Both the position numbers and the translations under genes were made by a program. This document shows positions 34,949 to 53,988 of a stretch of 64,000 nucleotides of DNA, piece after piece; the first letter of the stretch is position 1, and each line of letters begins with the position of its first letter. The notes beneath the pieces are model-generated. The model was not told the DNA's origin and made no database searches. It saw nothing but the letters and a program-made list of their open reading frames with translations. This stretch comes from a virus: the IMG/VR virus record IMGVR_UViG_3300047335_000079, positions 1 to 64,000 of that record. One strand, written 5' to 3'.

Positions 34949-35145
34949 TTGAGTTCCTCTTCTTTGATGCCGCGAATACGCGCGGCGTGTTTGTAGTCAG
35001 CCTCGATCATTTCGACGATCAGACTTGAAATGGAGTCGCCAGAGACTTTAGATATGAAGGCGAGCTTGGCAAAGAGCGCGGAATCCAGCCGGAGCGGGAA
35101 GTCCTTGCGCTCGATGCCTTGCGCCTTGAACTCAGATCGTGCCAT
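34945..35145 (-). CDS. Ribbon-helix-helix-like DNA-binding protein
   Basis: 66 residues. FPLRLDSALFAKLAFISKVS followed by GDSISSLIVEMIEADYK fits an Arc/MetJ-type ribbon-helix-helix: an N-terminal beta strand with alternating residues and two helices joined by a G-x-S turn. Candidate repressor for this region, perhaps acting at one of the palindromes upstream. Coupled to the amidotransferase gene. Confidence 0.6.
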   Translation of the reverse strand: MARSEFKAQGIERKDFPLRLDSALFAKLAFISKVSGDSISSLIVEMIEADYKHAARIRGIKEEELK

Positions 35146-36053
35146 TAGTCGTCATGCCCAAAGGGCAGTGAGTTAATTGCATCAACTTGAGCGTCGATGG
35201 GTAAGCCGGATTTGTACATGATTTCATGTACTGCGTCCATGAGCCGGGCGTTGGACGGGCGTTCGTCGCGCAAGCGTCCGGCCTGCGAGCGGGCTCCCAG
35301 GGGAGTCAGCCGCCCGTAGGTCTTGGCTTTTTGTGCGTGACGCTGGCGACGCCGGGCCCAACGATCACACTTCTTGCAGAAGCGGTCGTTTGCGATGCCG
35401 TGGTCACACGAGGTCAGGAACTTATTGGTTCGCGCCTGCCATTGTGCGAAGGTTTCAAGTGTGCCCGCTTGCGCGGTCAACTTAGACCCACCCGCCCAAT
35501 ACAGGGGCTCGAACGCGGAGTGGTTGGAGTACCAATTGCCGTCGCGCTTTACGCCCGCCTTATCGTTGAAGATGATCGTTGTGCCGTCTACGTCCATGAT
35601 GACGAACTTGGATGCCTCTTTCTTGGCATAGGCATCGACGTGCGCGATGAACTCTTCGTTTTGGAGGATGCCGGGTGCGGCTTCGAGCAGTGGTTCAAGT
35701 GAGCGAGCGTAGTGCCAAGTGTCACTCATCGAGGAGTCAATGTCACACTTGACCTCGCGCAGGATGCCGTTATGAAACAGCAGTGTGCCGGGCCTGACCG
35801 TAAACGGGTGGGTGTTTTTCAAGTTGATACTACCCGCCGTTGCGATTCGTGCGTGGAACACGATTTCAGTCGCACCTTGGGTTTTGTAGTGCGCCATTTC
35901 AGAGAGCAGCTTGTCCGTGGAGAAGCCCCGGGAGACTGCAATCCCGCCGTTGACACGCGCGGCTAGGCCCCACCCATGCGGGTTGGAGGAATTAGCGCGG
36001 CGGAGTTGATCGTCGGGGATGTTGGCGGTCGGGGATACGATGATGATGCAGAT
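35145..36053 (-). CDS. Class II glutamine amidotransferase, apparent ATC start
   Basis: 302 residues. The frame extends upstream of the first ATG (35897) to a Cys codon preceded by ATC (36053), with AGGAG 9 nt before it. This gives the expected N-terminal nucleophile Cys followed by NPHGWGLAARVNGGI, HARIATAGSINLKNTHPF (oxyanion/glutamine-binding Arg), LFHNGILREV and SDTWHYA, the full class II (Ntn) GATase signature. Starting at ATG 35897 would remove the nucleophile. It should release ammonia from glutamine for a partner synthetase, and amidoligase 2 lies immediately upstream. The C-terminus has CDHGIANDRFCKKCDRW, a possible zinc site. Confidence 0.75.
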   Translation of the reverse strand: MCIIIVSPTANIPDDQLRRANSSNPHGWGLAARVNGGIAVSRGFSTDKLLSEMAHYKTQGATEIVFHARIATAGSINLKNTHPFTVRPGTLLFHNGILREVKCDIDSSMSDTWHYARSLEPLLEAAPGILQNEEFIAHVDAYAKKEASKFVIMDVDGTTIIFNDKAGVKRDGNWYSNHSAFEPLYWAGGSKLTAQAGTLETFAQWQARTNKFLTSCDHGIANDRFCKKCDRWARRRQRHAQKAKTYGRLTPLGARSQAGRLRDERPSNARLMDAVHEIMYKSGLPIDAQVDAINSLPFGHDD

Positions 36054-42995: not shown

Positions 42996-43282
42996 TGCCC
43001 TTTAGTCTCGACGAATTCTCCCTTGACGAGCACCAACTCAAAGTTCTCGGAGACCTCAACTTGCGCCCCGGACAGCGCGATACCCTCAAGCGCGCAGGGG
43101 CCCTGTTCACCGAAGCCATTTCGTACTTCCACCAACTCGGGGACGCCGCAGTTGGGGACGAAAAAACCAAACTTCTCTACAACCGCAACAACGCCTACGA
43201 GCGCGCTCGGCTGTGCTTCCAACTCGCGGGGGAGCCGGAGCTTGACGAAGGGCTCGCGGCTTTCTGGAGGGCGTTGGAGTGA
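42995..43282 (+). CDS. Hypothetical helical protein
   Basis: 95 residues: LDEHQLKVLGDLNLRPGQRD, GALFTEAISYFHQLGD, NNAYERARLCFQLAGEPEL. TPR-like pairing of helices is possible. The end overlaps the methyltransferase start by 4 nt. Confidence 0.5.
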   Translation: MPFSLDEFSLDEHQLKVLGDLNLRPGQRDTLKRAGALFTEAISYFHQLGDAAVGDEKTKLLYNRNNAYERARLCFQLAGEPELDEGLAAFWRALE

Positions 43283-44409
43283 AAGTAATCGACCTTTTCG
43301 CAGGTATGGGCGGCTGGGACCTAGCCGCGCGTGAACTCGGGTTACGACCCCACTCCATCGAGTGGGACCCCATTATCACCGCGACCAATAACGCCGCTGG
43401 CGGCGACTGCATAACCGCTGACGTATCGAGTGTTCCCCTTGAAGGGCTGAAGTGTGATCTGCTCATCGCAAGCCCACCGTGTCAGTCATTCTCTATGGCA
43501 GGCAAGCGCGCGGGACTCTCGGACCCACGGGGCCAACTCGTGTGGGAGCCGCTGCGGTGGATTAAAGCGCTTCGCCCCGACTATGTAGCACTCGAACAGG
43601 TACCACCCGTGCTCCCCATTTGGCGCGAATATGGGGCTATTCTGCAAGAGCTAGGCTATTGCAGTTGGGCGGGCATCTTGCAGGCGGAAGCCTATGGCGT
43701 CCCCCAAACACGCAAGCGCGCTATTTTCATGGCACGCCGTGATAAAAACGGCGTGTTTCCACCTGCCCCTACGCACTCTAAATACTACTCCCACAACCCG
43801 ACTAAACTCGATGAGGGCGTCTTACCTTGGATTAGTATGGCCGAGGCTCTGGGGTGGGTGGGAGCCGAGCACCCCGCACCAACACTTGCGCTCTCCGGCT
43901 CCACATCACCCATTGGTGGCTCGGGCAGTCGCGCGGCATGGGAGGTGCGGACTCGTGGGGCGAGTGAGCGGCCCAACGATATCTTCTCTGCTGACGCCCC
44001 CGCGCGCACGGTCACGCACTCGGTGGACTATTGGGAGACTCGCCCTGCATCCACTATCGTAACGACGCGGCGCTCAAAAGACGGCATCATCGTGGGGCGT
44101 CAACTTCCCGAGGGTGAGCAGTCCAACCCCGAGCGTGGGTGGACCGCACGTCGGCCAAGCACCACGATTGTAGGCTCGTTCTCACCCGATATCGTCGCGC
44201 CACCCACCTACCGCAAGGCAGGCGATGGCCCGCGCCAGAATCAAAAGGGTGGTGTGAAGATCACACTTCAACAGGCACTAATCTTGCAGGGCTTCCCACC
44301 CGACTACCCCGTGATGGGCAAAAAGACCAAGCAGTTCTTGCAAGTCGGCAACGCTATCCCACCACCCTTGGCTTTGGCCATTCTCAAGGCACTGATAGTG
44401 AAAAAATGA
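43279..44409 (+). CDS. C5-cytosine DNA methyltransferase
   Basis: 376 residues. Motif I IDLFAGMGGWDLAARE, motif IV SPPCQSFSMAG (catalytic Cys), motif VI EQVPPVL (variant of ENV), motif VIII QTRKRAIFMAR and motif X QVGNAIPPPLALAIL. A target-recognition region of about 130 residues lies between VIII and X. It should methylate cytosines, most likely to shield phage DNA; no cognate restriction enzyme is adjacent. GTG start overlapping the upstream stop. Confidence 0.9.
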   Translation: MKVIDLFAGMGGWDLAARELGLRPHSIEWDPIITATNNAAGGDCITADVSSVPLEGLKCDLLIASPPCQSFSMAGKRAGLSDPRGQLVWEPLRWIKALRPDYVALEQVPPVLPIWREYGAILQELGYCSWAGILQAEAYGVPQTRKRAIFMARRDKNGVFPPAPTHSKYYSHNPTKLDEGVLPWISMAEALGWVGAEHPAPTLALSGSTSPIGGSGSRAAWEVRTRGASERPNDIFSADAPARTVTHSVDYWETRPASTIVTTRRSKDGIIVGRQLPEGEQSNPERGWTARRPSTTIVGSFSPDIVAPPTYRKAGDGPRQNQKGGVKITLQQALILQGFPPDYPVMGKKTKQFLQVGNAIPPPLALAILKALIVKK

Positions 44410-44719: not shown

Positions 44720-44833
44720 ATGACTCTCGACCCCGTAACGCTCATCTTCATTGGTGGCGGATGTGTTATCCTTGGATGGCTTATCGCTTGTGCGTTGAAC
44801 TGGGCTATTGACCGCATCTTTGAGGAGAACTAA
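44720..44833 (+). CDS. Very small membrane protein (37 residues)
   Basis: LDPVTLIFIGGGCVILGWLI plus ACALNWAIDRIFEEN: one membrane helix and an amphipathic end. TAATG overlap with the protease gene. Confidence 0.55.
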   Translation: MTLDPVTLIFIGGGCVILGWLIACALNWAIDRIFEEN

Positions 44834-45633
44834 TGCCGCCTGCCCCACGTAAGCCCTTTGTCGAACGCTACCGCGCTACCCCCAAATACGGTCTGCGCCC
44901 CGGACCCGACCCCATGCGCGAGCATTATCCAAAGTTCAAAGCTTCCAATGTGACCAAGGTCAAGACCTTCTTCACGCCTAGCGTGAGCTACGACTACCTC
45001 TTTGGTCCGGTCTTTGACCAAGGCCAAGAGGGCTCGTGTGTGTCCAATGGGTCCGCCGCGCTGATGCTCGCCTATCGCTCCAAGCGCCAGCACGAAATCC
45101 TCATGCCGTCGCGCCGAGCGATCTACACCCAGGCCCTTCTCAACAACGACGAGCCTCTCGAAGATAGTGGCCTCAATGTGTCCGATGGGCTCACGGTGTG
45201 CGAAGCGGGCTATATCCCCGAAGCCCTTTGGCCGTATACGGGCATTGGGACGCCGACTTTCTTTGACACCCCACCCGCGAGCCTGTGGCGTAGCGACTTC
45301 CATTTGACCAACTATGCCACCGTTGCACCTGACGTTCTCTCGATGCAACGGGCGCTCGTCGCGCATGGCCCAATCATCATCGGCATCGCCTTTGCCAATG
45401 AGTGGATGAACACGGGCGAGGACGGCATCCTCATTGGTGACCCGACGCAGTTGACCGTCGATGGCGGGCATTGCATGGTCATCACCGGATATAAGTCAAT
45501 CGGCGGTGTCGTGCACTTTCGGGTGCGTAACTCCTGGGGCGCGGCCTGGGCCGACAACGGGTACTGCTGGCTCCCCGCAACCCTTGCTGGGTCGCAGTTC
45601 TGGCCTACGGACTTGTTCGTTGTTCAAGCCTGA
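44833..45633 (+). CDS. Papain-like (C1) cysteine peptidase
   Basis: 266 residues. VFDQGQEGSCVSNGSAALM carries the oxyanion Gln and catalytic Cys of papain-fold enzymes, TVDGGHCMVITGY the catalytic His, and FRVRNSWGAAWADNGYCWLP the Asn motif (NSWG). No propeptide or signal peptide is obvious apart from a 60-residue N-terminal extension. C1 peptidases are rare in phages of bacteria; possible roles are prohead maturation, host-protein shutoff or a virion component. Confidence 0.8.
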   Translation: MPPAPRKPFVERYRATPKYGLRPGPDPMREHYPKFKASNVTKVKTFFTPSVSYDYLFGPVFDQGQEGSCVSNGSAALMLAYRSKRQHEILMPSRRAIYTQALLNNDEPLEDSGLNVSDGLTVCEAGYIPEALWPYTGIGTPTFFDTPPASLWRSDFHLTNYATVAPDVLSMQRALVAHGPIIIGIAFANEWMNTGEDGILIGDPTQLTVDGGHCMVITGYKSIGGVVHFRVRNSWGAAWADNGYCWLPATLAGSQFWPTDLFVVQA

Positions 45634-47230: not shown

Positions 47231-48697
47231 CTACTTAAACGAGGTCATTCTGTTCAAGCGCTGTCTGAGTGCAACGGCTCGCTCGAACTCAATTTGGTAG
47301 CCCAGCGCGTCGGAAACGTGAGTGCGCTCGGGGTCGGACTTTTTGTCGAGGTCGTTGGTGCCCTCGACGTACTTGACCATTTCAACGTCCTTGATGGTTT
47401 CGACACAGCGTGGGTGGAACCACATGCCGTAGCGGCCATCTGCTGCTTTCAAGTGAGCGTTGAACGCGCCGATGCGGTCTCCTACGCTCGATGACTTCAT
47501 TCGGATACGTGGCTCAAACCTAATACCGGCAAGGCGAAGTCTCTCGAAGATGACACCCCAGTTGGAACGGTTAGCTGATTGGGAGGAAATCTGCTGGCTT
47601 CGAGCCCCGCCTGCCGGGTCTCCGTAGATCACCACACCTTTCTTACGGGCTTGCTCACCGAACCTACGGATGAATTCATCAGCCACATCCGGGGCTCCTG
47701 CATCGTGCATGATGATCTCGTCGATGACATAGGTGATTTGCTCTTGGGCCGCAGGCACGGTCCAGTTGCGGAATTTCCGCATTTCTTCAATCGTCGAGCC
47801 CGCGACTTTGTGATAGTCCATGCCGCGACGGTCAATGGTGTGCGGTGCAACGAACGTCTGAGAGATCGTGCTGGCCATGTAGCCCACGTTAAAGTCCAGC
47901 GCCCATTGGAGTGGCAGGCCGTCGATGTACTCAATAGGCGGCAACCCCGCAAGTGGTTCGAGGTGGATGCGCCGGTCAAAGGCCTTGTAGACACGGCCCC
48001 GCACGGCATAGCCCCATTGCCCATCCACGAGAACATGTGCTTCGTCCTCGCTCATTGAGCGAAGCAGCATCGGTAGGTACTCGGGGTCAGCGTCGAGCAA
48101 GAACACGTTGTCTCGCACACTGACCTGCTGGTAGGTGCAAAAGTGCTGTTCTTCAAGAAGTTCGTAGAGCCAATGCGCGATCGTCTCAGGCGGGTTCGTT
48201 GAGAAGCGCAGTTGGGGTGAAAGATCGTCGTACTTTGCAGCTTTGCCTTCGGGTGAAGGACGCAAACGCGGGGTAAGGTACTTAACGAAGGCCTCGTTTG
48301 TTGGGCCCCAATCTGAGATTTCGTCGGCGTAGATGGAGTCCGCTTCCAAGGAGCGAAATGACTCGAAGTTTTCAGCCGTCAGTGGAAACAGCCGCGCATC
48401 CACCCCAGGGACCACAATGGTATTATCGGAGCGGTTATGAACGGCCTTGATGTTGCGCCGCGCGAACTCCGCCATAATCGACGGAATGGTGCCGCGCTTC
48501 AACTGTGGGGTGTCGCGACCTGCAAAGCAGTGCTTGGCGTGGGGGAACTTCATCACCCGGTCGATCAGCCACGAACAGCACACCTGCGTTTTGCCAGAGC
48601 CCAGGCCCCCAATGACGCCGTGAATACGGTTCTGATTGCCCAGGAACTCGGCCTGCCAGGGCAATACCTGGAGGCGATGTTCAACTACGTTTGGCAT
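47231..48697 (-). CDS. Terminase large subunit
   Basis: 488 residues from ATG 48697; an upstream TTG at 48730 would add 11. LPWQAEFL opens the ATPase; Walker A GVIGGLGSGKTQV; Walker B SIYADEIS; coupling motif LRFSTNPPE; nuclease motifs WALDFNVGY and VIYGDPAGG, then HVSDALGY with late acidic residues. It cuts and pumps DNA into proheads. It is encoded opposite to the small terminase, portal and head genes, which is unusual. Confidence 0.9.
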   Translation of the reverse strand: MPNVVEHRLQVLPWQAEFLGNQNRIHGVIGGLGSGKTQVCCSWLIDRVMKFPHAKHCFAGRDTPQLKRGTIPSIMAEFARRNIKAVHNRSDNTIVVPGVDARLFPLTAENFESFRSLEADSIYADEISDWGPTNEAFVKYLTPRLRPSPEGKAAKYDDLSPQLRFSTNPPETIAHWLYELLEEQHFCTYQQVSVRDNVFLLDADPEYLPMLLRSMSEDEAHVLVDGQWGYAVRGRVYKAFDRRIHLEPLAGLPPIEYIDGLPLQWALDFNVGYMASTISQTFVAPHTIDRRGMDYHKVAGSTIEEMRKFRNWTVPAAQEQITYVIDEIIMHDAGAPDVADEFIRRFGEQARKKGVVIYGDPAGGARSQQISSQSANRSNWGVIFERLRLAGIRFEPRIRMKSSSVGDRIGAFNAHLKAADGRYGMWFHPRCVETIKDVEMVKYVEGTNDLDKKSDPERTHVSDALGYQIEFERAVALRQRLNRMTSFK

Positions 48698-48820
48698 TTT
48701 GTTAAAAGGTTCCGCAGTCCCTTCTCGCAACCTTTAGGGTTGTGATAAAATGAAATTCGGACCTTTTCGAGAATTAACAGTACGCTTACGAACAATTTGG
48801 TCGCGAGGACACAACCCCAC

Positions 48821-49079: not shown

Positions 49080-49549
49080 TGTCTTTCATTACCAGGACCA
49101 TTCAAGGCGTCGTCGAATCGAGTGAGCGAAAGTTCATCATCGACAACTTCGTCCCTTACACCAACTCCCAAGGAGTCACCGTCTTGCCACCCTTCCTCAA
49201 AGAGATTCTCGCGCTGCTCGGCGGCGAAGTTGTCGCTTATCTCAACAGCCATGAGGCTGAGTTCATTGCCGCCGCGCAGGCCGCAGGGACGACTGGCGCT
49301 TCTGCGCTCAAGGCCTACATCAACAAGATCGTCGCTGGTGATGCGCTGCTCGCCCCGTTTGCTTCGCTCATCGACGCGGCGATTGACGCGGCGCTGCCCA
49401 AACTCCTCGCGGCTGCTGGCGGCGACGAGAAACTGCTCTACGCCGCAGTCCTGGCCTATGTGAGCAAAGAGCTTGGCTACTTGAGTGCCCCAAACCCAGC
49501 CTCGGCTATCCCTGGGCTGGTCGGCGCGCGCCCAATCGGAGCGGACTAA
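49079..49549 (+). CDS. Hypothetical protein, possibly virion-associated
   Basis: 156 residues. N-terminal FITRTIQGVVESSERKFIID, then Ala-rich helices (HEAEFIAAAQAAGTTGAS, SLIDAAIDAALPKLLAAAGG). No family recognised. Followed by the structured RNA and tRNA cluster. Confidence 0.5.
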   Translation: MSFITRTIQGVVESSERKFIIDNFVPYTNSQGVTVLPPFLKEILALLGGEVVAYLNSHEAEFIAAAQAAGTTGASALKAYINKIVAGDALLAPFASLIDAAIDAALPKLLAAAGGDEKLLYAAVLAYVSKELGYLSAPNPASAIPGLVGARPIGAD

Positions 49550-49551
49550 GC

Positions 49552-49686
49552 TTCTAGCGCCTACACCTTCCGGGGAAACTTCTGGCAAAAAACGGGTAAA
49601 GCCGCTTCACTGGGCCAGCGGGAAAGAACCGATTGGGGTTTGACGACTAACGAGGAGTGGCGTTAGGGGCGCTAGAATACCACTCC
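49552..49686 (+). ncRNA. Putative structured RNA with pseudoknot, upstream of tRNA cluster
   Basis: A perfect 10-bp long-range helix TTCTAGCGCC (49552-49561) / GGCGCTAGAA (49668-49677) encloses four hairpins: CCGG/CTGG (49570-49585), CCGC/GCGG (49602-49621), AACC/GGTT (49627-49640) and CTAACG/CGTTAG (49647-49666). The loop of the last, GGAGTGG (49654-49660), pairs exactly with CCACTCC (49680-49686), forming a pseudoknot. No coding frame fits. The class is not recognised; it ends 5 nt before the tRNA-Trp-like element. Confidence 0.6.
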
Positions 49687-49691
49687 ATCAA

Positions 49692-49763
49692 GCCGCTAGT
49701 GCAAGGACACAGACGGGTCTCCAAAACCAGTCGAGCTTCGGGCAGTACGAAGGGGCGGTGCCA
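49692..49763 (+). tRNA. tRNA-Trp-like element (anticodon CCA), atypical
   Basis: Anticodon loop CTCCAAA (anticodon 49721-49723) on a stem with one mismatch. The acceptor stem GCCGCTA/GGGCGGT has two G-T pairs and one A-G mismatch, discriminator G and encoded CCA (49761-49763). T stem CTTCG/CGAAG is perfect but the loop GGCAGTA lacks TTC, and the D arm is short (GTG/CAC). Its CCA directly abuts the next tRNA. Degenerate or specialised tRNA. Confidence 0.45.
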
Positions 49764-49837
49764 TGCGGGGAGAAGCGGCTCTTCACCAGTGTCTCATAAG
49801 CACTCGGGATTAGGTTCAACTCCTGGCCCCGCATCCA
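49764..49837 (+). tRNA. tRNA-Met (anticodon CAT), compact D arm
   Basis: Perfect acceptor stem TGCGGGG/CCCCGCA with T discriminator and encoded CCA; anticodon stem AGTGT/GCACT with loop CTCATAA (anticodon 49795-49797); T arm TTAGG-TTCAACT-CCTGG with two G-T pairs; D stem GAAG/CTTC with a 5-nt loop CGGCT. A CAT anticodon could also be tRNA-Ile2 after lysidine modification. Confidence 0.75.
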
Positions 49838-49838
49838 A

Positions 49839-49885
49839 AAGACCCCTTGCCCCAGACCAACTTTGGGGATGTAGGGGTCTTTTTA
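49839..49885 (+). terminator. Hairpin with T-tract between tRNA-Met and tRNA-Asn
   Basis: AAGACCCC (49839-49846) pairs with GGGGTCTT (49874-49881), with an inner CCCC/GGGG stem, followed by TTTTTAT. Either a partial terminator or a processing hairpin between the tRNAs. Confidence 0.65.
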
Positions 49886-49963
49886 TGAGAGGTAGCTCAG
49901 TTGGTATAGAGCACCCGCCTGTTAAGTGGGTTGTCGCTGGTTCGAGCCCAGCCCTCTCAGCCA
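49886..49963 (+). tRNA. tRNA-Asn (anticodon GTT)
   Basis: Acceptor TGAGAGG/CCTCTCA, D arm GCTC-AGTTGGTATA-GAGC, anticodon stem CCCGC/GTGGG with loop CTGTTAA (anticodon 49921-49923), T arm GCTGG-TTCGAGC-CCAGC, discriminator G and encoded CCA. Canonical. Confidence 0.95.
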
Positions 49964-49966
49964 CTG

Positions 49967-50015
49967 CCCCAGTGTAGCCTCTGCTTTACGACACGTTCCT
50001 GGGGTTTTTCTTTTT
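49967..50015 (+). terminator. Rho-independent terminator of tRNA cluster
   Basis: CCCCAG (49967-49972) pairs with CTGGGG (49999-50004) around a 26-nt loop, followed by TTTTTCTTTTT. Confidence 0.75.
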
Positions 50016-50058
50016 CCTAAAGGCTTGAGCACTCGTGCGGCTAACTTAAAAGTTGCCT

Positions 50059-50607
50059 ATGTCATCGTATCATTGGGAGGAGCTAGACAAACTCTATCCC
50101 AAGCAGGCAGACAAATTCAGTCGTGCTCGCTCCCGCGTAATCTCAAACGGGACTCCGTTGGAGACTCTCGCGGCGATGCTTGACCTCCCACTTGAAATGC
50201 TGCGTGCTCGGTCCTCGGATGAGGGGTGGGAATCGCTTCGCTTTGAGCACCTCAAAAGTTCGTCGGTTGAAGCCGCCGAAGCCATACTTGCAGCCACGCA
50301 AGCCACCCTCGCCTCTTCCCCCGACAACGACCTCGAACGCCACATCACCTCGGCTGACGCGGCTGTCCGAATGGGTGAAAACCTCATCCTCGCGCTCGCC
50401 AACTCCGAGACCAACGAGCGAGACTTGAAAATCATCCGTGCAAAGATCGAGGCATTTCGTTCGCTGGCCGAAGGCCTGGAGTCCGTCATCAAAACTTCGC
50501 GCTCTGTTCGTGGTATCAAAAACGACCAACCCTCTAAAGTGGTCGAGAAGGAATCCACCAAAGTCATCTACGAGACCGTCATTGTGCCTGCGAGACAGAC
50601 GGCATAA
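50059..50607 (+). CDS. Terminase small subunit (probable)
   Basis: 182 residues from ATG 50059; a TTG two codons upstream is an alternative. N-terminal HTH-like part (GTPLETLAAMLDLPLEMLRA), central helices (TSADAAVRMGENLILALANS), C-terminal basic/Pro tail. This size, domain order and position directly before the portal gene fit a DNA-recognising small terminase. TAATG overlap with portal. Confidence 0.65.
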   Translation: MSSYHWEELDKLYPKQADKFSRARSRVISNGTPLETLAAMLDLPLEMLRARSSDEGWESLRFEHLKSSSVEAAEAILAATQATLASSPDNDLERHITSADAAVRMGENLILALANSETNERDLKIIRAKIEAFRSLAEGLESVIKTSRSVRGIKNDQPSKVVEKESTKVIYETVIVPARQTA

Positions 50608-52265
50608 TGGGCTTCAAAGAGATCAAGCGCGCCTGGTCAAACAAGTACCCCAAGGGCACGCCACCGCGCGTGAAGGACCTCGACGCCTACGACAAGATGC
50701 TCGCAGGCGACTTCTACGATATTCTCCCGCACCCGTTTGAAAAAGAGAAGAACGGCGACCAGGAGATTCCGCTCTACGAGCGCCGCCCTAACGTCCAGTA
50801 CAACATGTGCGAAATGCTCACCCACCAGCAGGCGTCCCTGCTTTTTGGTGACAAGCATCGCCCATCCATTCGCGTGTACGACCCAAAGCAGCCCGACGCC
50901 CCGCCCGATGACCTCAAGCAGTCGCAAATCGTCATCGACGCACTGCACGATCAACTCGACCTAGATGAAGTTCTCTTAGAGGCCGTCATCAAAGGCCAAT
51001 CGGGCTCGGTCGCGCTTATCGTGTCGATGGTAGCAGATGAGCTGCCGTTTATCGACGTGGTTGAAGGCAAGAAATGCCAACCGAAGTTCAACCCCGCTAA
51101 CCCCCGCGAACTCATTGCACTGGTGCGTGAGTACACCACGCTGGGCGCTGAGCTTTCGACTTTAGGCTACGATATCCCAGATGAAAACTTGCAAAAGACG
51201 TACTGGGTACGCATGGTTCTCGACGCAGCCCGAGACACATGGTACATCCCCATGCTCAATGAAAAACACGAACGGTTAGGCGAGAAAGACCTCTCCGAGC
51301 CGGGCGGCGTCATTGCATGGCGCGAGGACCTCGAACGCTCGCGCAACCACCCATTCAAAGTCGTTCCGTGCGTGTGGATTCGTAACTTGAACGAGCGCCG
51401 CAAGATCGACGGCAAGTGCACGTTCCAGTCCATCGTGGACATTCAAGTCGCGCTGGACTACCTTGCTTCGCAGATCACGCGCGGCTTCCACTACACCGCA
51501 GACCCCTTTCTTGCCGTTCAACGCGGTGAGCTGGACTCGATGATTCCTATCGGTGGTTCCGCGCTTGACCCGCTTACAGAGATGGATGCGCCAGTCAACA
51601 TTGACGTAAAGGGCACCCCTGCGCGTACAATGTCCATCCCTCATGGTGCAAAAGCCGAACTGCTCGAAATCGAGGGCGGTGGGCTGGCCGGGGCCAAGGA
51701 CTGGTTCATTACGCTGCGGGAAGCCGCACTTGAAATCATGAGTGGCTCCAAGGCCATGCAAGAGCGCACCAGCGGCAACCCGCACTCAGGCAAAGCGCTA
51801 GAGATTCTCCAACAGGCGCTCGTGTGGCTCATTGAGCGCCAGCGCCTTGCCTATGGCGAGCACGGGCTCATTCCACTGCTCCGCCTGCTCATGACGGCGT
51901 ATCAGAGTGATCTCTACGACCTCGATGGCATTTCGGGCGGCTTGAAAAACCCCAACGTGCCACTCAAACTCATTTGGCCGTCGTGGATGACCCCGACCGG
52001 AGATGAGTTGCTCTCGACGGTTACGGCCCTGCAACTCGCGGCTGGTGGCTCGGTCCGCGAGCCGCGTCAAATCGCCCCGATGGACGTGGTGATTCGCCAG
52101 GCCCTCATGGCCCTGGGCTACCCCGACCCCTCACCCGCCATCAACCAGGCGCTGGAAGAGAGTCGTGAGTTCTTGGAGGATAAAGCCGAGCATGAGCTTG
52201 CGGTCGAGGCTATCGGACCGAAGATCGCCGCGAGCGCCCCGGCAAGCAAGCCCGCCTCCAAATAG
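50607..52265 (+). CDS. Portal protein
   Basis: 552 residues. VQYNMCEMLTHQQASLLFGD near residue 70, FKVVPCVWIRNLNERRKIDG, FQSIVDIQVALDYLASQITR, a KAMQERTSGNPHSGKALEIL segment and ALVWLIERQRLAYGEHGLIP fit SPP1-type portal proteins. It forms the dodecameric ring through which the terminase packages DNA. C-terminus ends in an Ala/Lys-rich tail. Directly after the small terminase and before the scaffold. Confidence 0.85.
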   Translation: MGFKEIKRAWSNKYPKGTPPRVKDLDAYDKMLAGDFYDILPHPFEKEKNGDQEIPLYERRPNVQYNMCEMLTHQQASLLFGDKHRPSIRVYDPKQPDAPPDDLKQSQIVIDALHDQLDLDEVLLEAVIKGQSGSVALIVSMVADELPFIDVVEGKKCQPKFNPANPRELIALVREYTTLGAELSTLGYDIPDENLQKTYWVRMVLDAARDTWYIPMLNEKHERLGEKDLSEPGGVIAWREDLERSRNHPFKVVPCVWIRNLNERRKIDGKCTFQSIVDIQVALDYLASQITRGFHYTADPFLAVQRGELDSMIPIGGSALDPLTEMDAPVNIDVKGTPARTMSIPHGAKAELLEIEGGGLAGAKDWFITLREAALEIMSGSKAMQERTSGNPHSGKALEILQQALVWLIERQRLAYGEHGLIPLLRLLMTAYQSDLYDLDGISGGLKNPNVPLKLIWPSWMTPTGDELLSTVTALQLAAGGSVREPRQIAPMDVVIRQALMALGYPDPSPAINQALEESREFLEDKAEHELAVEAIGPKIAASAPASKPASK

Positions 52266-53074: not shown

Positions 53075-53089
53075 ATGGCCTTTGAGTGA
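53075..53089 (+). CDS. Four-codon leader ORF
   Basis: ATGGCCTTTGAGTGA: M-A-F-E-stop. The TGA overlaps the GTG start of the endonuclease gene by two bases, so translation of the leader could couple or limit endonuclease expression. Confidence 0.35.
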   Translation: MAFE

Positions 53090-53988
53090 AATCTAGCACA
53101 GCCGCAGTTTCTCGATTGCGCTTACGACGACTAACCTCGGGCCTTTGTCAGCTTTGCGGCAGGCGTCCGTGCCTGCCTGAACTAAAGTCATGTGGTGCCT
53201 GCTCACTGCGCAACCAGGAAAAAACCAAGGCTGATTGGGTTAAAACGAAATCACAAGAGAGCGAGACCGCTAAGTCAGCGCGCCGAGCGCAAAGCCGTGA
53301 GGCTACCCGCAAACTTCGCGAGGCGCGGCTTGCTAATAATAAGTGTGTTCTGTGCGGCGACTACCCCCCACGCCCAGGGTTTACGCAATGCGAAGCATGC
53401 GCTCAACTCCGCCGCGACCGCGCGCGGGAGTACGAGGCTAAGAGGCGCGCAAATGGAGAGTGTCGTCGATGCCGGAACCCAATTCGCCCTGGAACTCAGC
53501 AGTGTGAGGCTCACTTAGCACTCGATGCAGAGCGCCAGCAAAACCGAATGCCAACCCTACGGTCCCAGCAGCGCGCGGCGGGTATTTGTATTTATTGTGG
53601 CACCCAGCCCGCTCGCGAGGGTCGCGTGGGGTGTGCTATTTGTGCTACAAAAAATAAGGTTTCTTACGACAAGCGGGGTCGGCGGTGGGCACTAAACGTC
53701 CTTTCGCGAAGCCGATGGTCCGCGACTCAGCATGGGGGCAAGCCCCTACTAGTCACCCCCGAATGGCTGGTGGAGTCTCGCTTACAGGCAAATGATACGT
53801 GTGAAGGATGCCTTAAAGTTACTGAAAAACTCCGGCCAGACCACAGCCATCTCGACGGAACCTTCCGAGCATGGTTGTGTGGAACGTGCAACAGCGCGCT
53901 TGGAATGGTTAAGGATAATGACAAAACCCTAGAGCGCTTAGCCCAGATCGTAAAAAGACACGCGGCGGGCACTAGCGAAGAGGCTTAA
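53086..53988 (+). CDS. Endonuclease VII-like nuclease with four Cys repeats
   Basis: 300 residues, GTG start. Four zinc-knuckle repeats: CQLCGRRPCLPELKSCGAC, CVLCGDYPPRPGFTQCEAC, CRRCRNPIRPGTQQC and CIYCGTQPAREGRVGCAIC. The C-terminal 100 residues have CEGCLKVTEKLRPDHSHLDG, FRAWLCGTCNSALG and a D-x(n) helix, the signature of recombination endonuclease VII/HNH enzymes (DH plus N catalytic residues). It has its own consensus promoter and interrupts the scaffold-capsid gene order, as mobile phage endonuclease genes do. It could resolve DNA junctions or act as a homing enzyme. Confidence 0.8.
   Translation: MKSSTAAVSRLRLRRLTSGLCQLCGRRPCLPELKSCGACSLRNQEKTKADWVKTKSQESETAKSARRAQSREATRKLREARLANNKCVLCGDYPPRPGFTQCEACAQLRRDRAREYEAKRRANGECRRCRNPIRPGTQQCEAHLALDAERQQNRMPTLRSQQRAAGICIYCGTQPAREGRVGCAICATKNKVSYDKRGRRWALNVLSRSRWSATQHGGKPLLVTPEWLVESRLQANDTCEGCLKVTEKLRPDHSHLDGTFRAWLCGTCNSALGMVKDNDKTLERLAQIVKRHAAGTSEEA

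What the first reader, a model, noticed from the sequence alone, without database searches (positions are those of the whole stretch)
49552..49686. Pseudoknotted RNA just upstream of a tRNA cluster
A perfect 10-bp closing helix, four internal hairpins and a 7-bp match between a hairpin loop (49654-49660) and the sequence just 3' of the closing helix (49680-49686) make a compact, multi-branched, pseudoknotted fold. Independent perfect complementarities in 135 nt of noncoding DNA are hard to get by chance. It could be a ribozyme, a tRNA-linked RNA, an intron remnant or a packaging signal.
Basis: seen in the sequence. Interest (0 to 1): 0.75.

Follow-up and report, generated by a model that had tools for sequence, protein, structure and literature searches.

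The report
Orphan pseudoknotted RNA beside phage tRNAs
A phage of unknown host has, just in front of a small group of tRNA genes, a 135-base non-coding stretch that can fold into a compact knotted RNA better than most scrambled copies of itself, but no relative of it could be found, so whether it is a working RNA or a lucky fold stays open.

Summary
The pairings are real. 49552-49561/49668-49677 is a perfect 10-bp helix. Hairpin 49647-49652/49661-49666 presents GGAGTGG (49654-49660), which pairs perfectly with CCACTCC (49680-49686). A pseudoknot-aware fold picks exactly this pseudoknot without being told. On an untuned stretch (stop codon to next tRNA, 49550-49691) 17 of 1600 shuffles fold as well and 1 of 1600 gains as much from a pseudoknot. 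Without the pseudoknot the stretch is unremarkable (z -0.6). Scanning 64 kb would give about one or two such gains by chance, so the case is suggestive, not proven.

The surroundings were incomplete. Between the RNA and the annotated tRNA-Met lies an uncalled tRNA-Trp-like gene (49692-49763, anticodon CCA, encoded CCA end), abutting tRNA-Met base to base. The RNA starts 2 nt after an upstream stop codon and ends 5 nt before this tRNA.

No homologue was found in Rfam, phages, plasmids, related IMG/VR contigs or 1475 sampled genomes, so covariation could not be tested. Group I intron, known ribozymes, tmRNA, tRNA and T-box receive no support from Rfam. Most likely: an orphan structured RNA cut from the tRNA transcript, placed like (but far smaller than) GOLLD/ROOL. 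A chance fold is a serious rival.

The parts
49552..49562 (+). P1 closing helix, 5' strand (10 perfect pairs plus one U-G)
49667..49677 (+). P1 closing helix, 3' strand
49566..49574 (+). P2, weak 3-bp hairpin
   Evidence: pseudoknot-aware fold
49579..49621 (+). P3 (CTGGC 49582-49586 / GCCAG 49614-49618, plus 2 outer pairs) enclosing P4 hairpin (CGG 49593-49595 / CCG 49602-49604)
   Evidence: pseudoknot-aware fold
49626..49641 (+). P5 hairpin GAACC/GGTTT
   Evidence: 17-nt sub-threshold similarity to the gut-2 hairpin (16.3 bits, gathering 39.8)
49647..49666 (+). P6 hairpin CTAACG/CGTTAG; loop 49654-49660 GGAGTGG is the 5' strand of the pseudoknot
49680..49686 (+). CCACTCC, 3' strand of the pseudoknot
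49692..49763 (+). uncalled tRNA-Trp-like gene: acceptor GCCGCTA/GGGCGGT (6 of 7), D-arm GTG/CAC, anticodon arm with loop CTCCAAA (anticodon CCA), T-arm CTTCG-GGCAGTA-CGAAG, discriminator G, encoded CCA; T-loop not canonical
   Evidence: descriptor scan: 23 of 600 shuffled windows have any such locus; cloverleaf appears in the pseudoknotted fold of 49552-49763; not scored by ARAGORN or Rfam
49764..49837 (+). tRNA-Met (CAT) with encoded CCA, short D-loop; below the Rfam gathering score
49837..49888 (+). intrinsic terminator (11-bp perfect stem, then TTTTT) after tRNA-Met
   Evidence: sequence
49886..49963 (+). tRNA-Asn (GTT) with encoded CCA
49968..50013 (+). likely terminator after tRNA-Asn (CCCCAG...CTGGGG then a T run)
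   Evidence: sequence

Best explanation
A phage-encoded, non-coding structured RNA of about 135-142 nt forms the 5' part of the tRNA-Trp/tRNA-Met transcript. A long closing helix (P1) holds a multi-branched junction, and the last hairpin loop (P6) pairs with the tail just 3' of P1, locking the domain into a pseudoknot in which P6 can stack on P1. RNase P cutting at the 5' end of the tRNA-Trp-like unit (49691/49692) would free the RNA with an intact pseudoknot and a 5-nt tail. The mature RNA then acts most likely as a free-standing phage RNA, placed like GOLLD and ROOL. Shown here: the pairings, pseudoknot-aware stability above shuffles, non-coding status, and the abutting tRNA-Trp-like unit. 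Inferred: transcription, processing, function.
For: Perfect P1, P6 and pseudoknot complementarities. An unguided pseudoknot search returns exactly this pseudoknot for 49552-49686 and 49550-49691 and for five of the six larger stretches tried. Gain from the pseudoknot is matched by 1 of 1600 shuffles. The RNA fits between a stop codon (2 nt upstream) and a tRNA-like unit (5 nt downstream) with nothing left over. Folding 49552-49763 with the pseudoknot yields the RNA domain plus a separate tRNA-Trp cloverleaf, -72.7 against -68.3 nested. No frame looks coding. Phage structured RNAs near tRNA islands are a known phenomenon (PMC12286853).
Against: No homologue, hence no covariation. Nested stability is ordinary. 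Other 9-bp perfect complementarities in the same region would break the fold (49531-39/49629-37; 49600-08/49772-80). In 49500-49700 P1 has probability 0.02 and a different pseudoknot scores better. With tRNA-Met added, the pseudoknotted MFE no longer shows the Trp cloverleaf. No sigma-70 promoter was found upstream. About one or two equal gains are expected per 64 kb.
Confidence: 0.42

Rival explanations
1. Chance fold: the stretch is an ordinary GC-rich spacer or decaying DNA between a gene and a tRNA cluster, and the pseudoknot was picked out of 64 kb by an attentive reader.
For: Nested MFE unremarkable; 4 of 200 shuffled windows contain a like combination and a larger pseudoknot gain exists elsewhere in the window; no homologues; competing complementarities; complement strand folds as well.
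Against: Untuned segment still at 17 of 1600 for energy and 1 of 1600 for pseudoknot gain; only a small part of the window is non-coding, so the correction for looking elsewhere is smaller than for all 64 kb; boundaries match the neighbours.
Confidence: 0.36
2. Cis-acting leader: the knot is not a free RNA but a device in the transcript that controls maturation, stability or read-through into the tRNAs, for example by blocking 5'-to-3' decay or by switching between P1/P6 and the nested GGAGTGG/CCACTCC hairpin.
For: Position directly upstream of the tRNAs; two mutually exclusive nested folds (P1 against the loop-tail hairpin) of similar energy in longer contexts.
Against: No terminator or ribosome-binding site is controlled by the tail (sequence); no match to T-box or any riboswitch model.
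Confidence: 0.13
3. Remnant of further tRNAs or of a group I intron once inserted in the tRNA array.
For: Neighbouring Trp-like and Met units are divergent; the 8-mer AAGCCGCT is repeated at 49599 and 49690; GACGACTA resembles a group I P7 strand (from memory only).
Against: tRNA and group I models give nothing at E 10 in this stretch; no T-loop, no 7-bp acceptor followed by discriminator and CCA; the tRNAs are not split.
Confidence: 0.06
4. Stop-codon read-through or frameshift signal for the ORF ending at 49549.
For: The frame stays open for 38 codons after the TAA and a structure follows the stop.
Against: Codon usage of that frame scores -6.3, below the 1st percentile of true coding; P1 starts 2 nt after the stop, too close for known stimulators (general knowledge); no slippery heptamer seen at the stop.
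Confidence: 0.03

Closest known systems
GOLLD and ROOL RNAs
   Same: Structured non-coding RNAs of phages and prophages, often beside tRNA islands (PMC12286853); ROOL is predicted to hold several pseudoknots.
   Different: GOLLD often exceeds 800 nt and both form homo-oligomeric cages; this one is about 135 nt and matches no Rfam model.
gut-2 RNA (RF02990)
   Same: 17 nt of P5 (49624-49640) resemble its second hairpin, 16.3 bits.
   Different: Far below the gathering score of 39.8 bits, covers positions 26-42 of 48 only, E 0.15; not a member.
Group I introns
   Same: Pseudoknotted; occur in phages and tRNAs (general knowledge).
   Different: No Rfam match at E 10, no split gene.
T-box leaders
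   Same: The P6 loop region holds UGGC, complementary to a G-CCA tRNA end (inspection).
   Different: No Rfam match; no specifier stem or terminator identified; downstream genes are tRNAs, not synthetases.

Membership tests
GOLLD / ROOL | match to the family covariance model | tested here: not met
GOLLD / ROOL | phage location beside tRNA genes | tested here: met
GOLLD / ROOL | homo-oligomeric assembly | not testable with these tools
   needs biochemistry or cryo-EM
Group I intron | catalytic core model match | tested here: not met
   no match at E 10 in 49450-50060 or 49545-49695
Group I intron | interrupts a gene | tested here: not met
   neighbouring tRNAs are unsplit, upstream ORF ends before it
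Known self-cleaving ribozymes | family model match | tested here: not met
tmRNA | tRNA-like ends plus tag reading frame | tested here: not met
   ARAGORN default and Rfam none; only spurious relaxed calls
tRNA (for 49552-49686) | cloverleaf with T-arm, 7-bp acceptor, discriminator, CCA | tested here: not met
tRNA-Trp (for 49692-49763) | cloverleaf, CCA anticodon, discriminator G, CCA end | tested here: met
tRNA-Trp (for 49692-49763) | canonical T-loop and model score | tested here: not met
   loop GGCAGTA; no Rfam match at E 10
Functional structured RNA in general | covariation in homologues | not testable with these tools
   no homologue found

The most novel reading that the evidence does not exclude
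A new class of small pseudoknotted phage RNA (possibly catalytic or a tRNA-precursor cap) that is cut out of tRNA transcripts by RNase P, unrelated to any Rfam family.
Probability: 0.12. Interest if true: 0.65.

Novelty: new member of a known kind. Interest (0 to 1): 0.32.

Why it matters
Structured RNAs beside phage tRNA islands are among the least understood phage products. A 135-nt example would be far easier to probe than GOLLD-sized ones, and its placement 5 nt before a tRNA makes an excision route testable. As it stands there is one sequence and no covariation, so it is a lead, not a discovery.

Tried and rejected
Rfam at gathering and at E 10: no family. blastn to phages and plasmids: only tRNA matches or chance. 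Relatives by portal and terL: the closest (L002, 80% portal) starts inside the portal gene and so does not reach the RNA; L006/L074 and L073 (43-46% portal or terL) have no tRNA and no match. DNA patterns in viral contigs and genome contigs: 25, 27, 72 and 22 stretches. The contexts of the first two sets were read: the 25 have no matching surroundings, and of the 27 the high scorers lie in open frames. All four sets were run against a single-sequence covariance model; best 16.6 bits, in an open frame. That model in 48 sources (window plus relatives), 11 records and 1475 genomes of four groups: only the window itself, plus 11.8 bits in phiKX1/2 at E 0.05, taken as chance and not inspected. It is a one-sequence model and the host is unknown, so these negatives are weak. 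The 291-nt gap before terS in phiKX1 holds no tRNA and no comparable closing helix; one 135-nt window there does show a pseudoknot gain of 6.7. Readthrough coding rejected by codon usage.

Full report
What the finding says and what is there. The window is part of a 70,979-base IMG/VR virus record. The region lies at the start of the head module. A terL-like gene is on the minus strand (47231-48730), an unknown ORF on the plus strand ends at 49549, then come the stretch in question, tRNA genes, a terS-like ORF (184 aa from TTG 50053; assigned by position only, no PHROG or Pfam match), a portal gene (50607-52265) and a scaffold gene.

Is the fold more than chance? Ordinary nested folding says no: z 0.01 for 49545-49695, -1.46 for P1-bounded 49552-49677. 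To avoid tuned ends the test was repeated on 49550-49691, set by the upstream stop codon and the downstream tRNA: z -2.6, 17 of 1600 shuffles as stable, 1 of 1600 with as large a gain. Across the window the 99.9th percentile of the gain was 6.8 and one window reached 8.9, against 7.9 here. A descriptor of a 10-bp closing helix plus a 7-nt loop-flank match occurs in 4 of 200 shuffled windows. The feature is rare per segment but one or two like it are expected in 64 kb. I treat it as suggestive.

Limits of the fold. With 50 more upstream bases P1 almost vanishes from the nested ensemble, the loop-tail helix forms as a simple hairpin and a different pseudoknot scores best. Two other perfect 9-bp complementarities (49531-49539 with 49629-49637; 49600-49608 with 49772-49780) compete. 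The complement strand folds nearly as well. The fold is therefore most credible if the RNA is made or cut with a 5' end near 49530-49552.

The surroundings hold an uncalled tRNA. 49692-49763 reads as a tRNA-Trp: acceptor GCCGCTA/GGGCGGT, D-stem GTG/CAC, anticodon loop CTCCAAA with anticodon CCA, 5-bp T-stem with a 7-nt loop, discriminator G and an encoded CCA that ends exactly where tRNA-Met begins (49764). A cloverleaf descriptor finds four loci in the window (Trp-like, Met, Asn, Pro) and any locus at all in only 23 of 600 shuffled windows; the descriptor was loosened after a stricter version missed the Trp-like and Met units. Neither ARAGORN nor Rfam calls it, and its T-loop (GGCAGTA) is not canonical, so it may be a pseudogene or an odd tRNA. 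Folding 49552-49763 with the pseudoknot gives the RNA domain followed by this cloverleaf as the best structure, though not when tRNA-Met is appended. The RNA thus fills the space between stop codon and tRNA with 2 nt and 5 nt to spare.

Not coding. The frame of the upstream ORF stays open for 38 codons after the stop, but its codon score (-6.3) lies below the 1st percentile of true coding windows of the same length (-1.6); the other frames are worse or have stops.

Relatives. None of the RNA was found: Rfam down to E 10, blastn in phages and plasmids, a covariance model from the single sequence in related loci and records, in pattern-matched loci and in 1475 genomes from four groups. The phage itself has few relatives: portal and capsid match only Komagataeibacter phages phiKX1/2 at 30-35% in the phage collection, an 80% relative is cut off before the RNA, and 43-46% relatives lack tRNAs.

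Mechanism. The best-supported reading is a structured RNA co-transcribed with the tRNAs and freed by tRNA 5' processing. Its position recalls GOLLD and ROOL, described as phage and prophage RNAs often near tRNA islands (PMC12286853), but it is several times smaller and matches neither. Transcription, cleavage and function are inferred. A cis-acting leader and plain chance remain open; intron, ribozyme, tmRNA and packaging readings have no support.

Verdict. Observation confirmed; significance moderate; identity unproven. Interest 0.32.

Noticed in passing
49692-49763 (+): tRNA-Trp(CCA)-like unit with encoded CCA, missed by ARAGORN and Rfam, abutting tRNA-Met without a spacer.
   Followed up: yes
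49837-49888 and 49968-50013 (+): A terminator-like hairpin with T run follows tRNA-Met and another follows tRNA-Asn, although no sigma-70-like promoter was found between the two tRNAs.
   Followed up: partly
47231-48730 (-): The terL-like gene is on the opposite strand to the terS-like, portal and capsid genes; the same opposite orientation of terL and portal is seen in L006 and L073.
   Followed up: no
44833-45633 (+): Papain-family cysteine protease (PF00112), close to a C5 cytosine methylase (43279-44409).
   Followed up: no
53086-53988 (+): Endonuclease VII-like gene (PF02945) lying between the scaffold gene and the capsid-like gene, a possible free-standing nuclease insertion.
   Followed up: no
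35182-35316 (+): Largest pseudoknot gain of the window scan (8.9 kcal/mol, 9-bp helix), overlapping a minus-strand ORF (35145-35897).
   Followed up: no
49624-49640 (+): Sub-threshold 17-nt resemblance to the gut-2 RNA hairpin (16.3 bits, E 0.15).
   Followed up: partly
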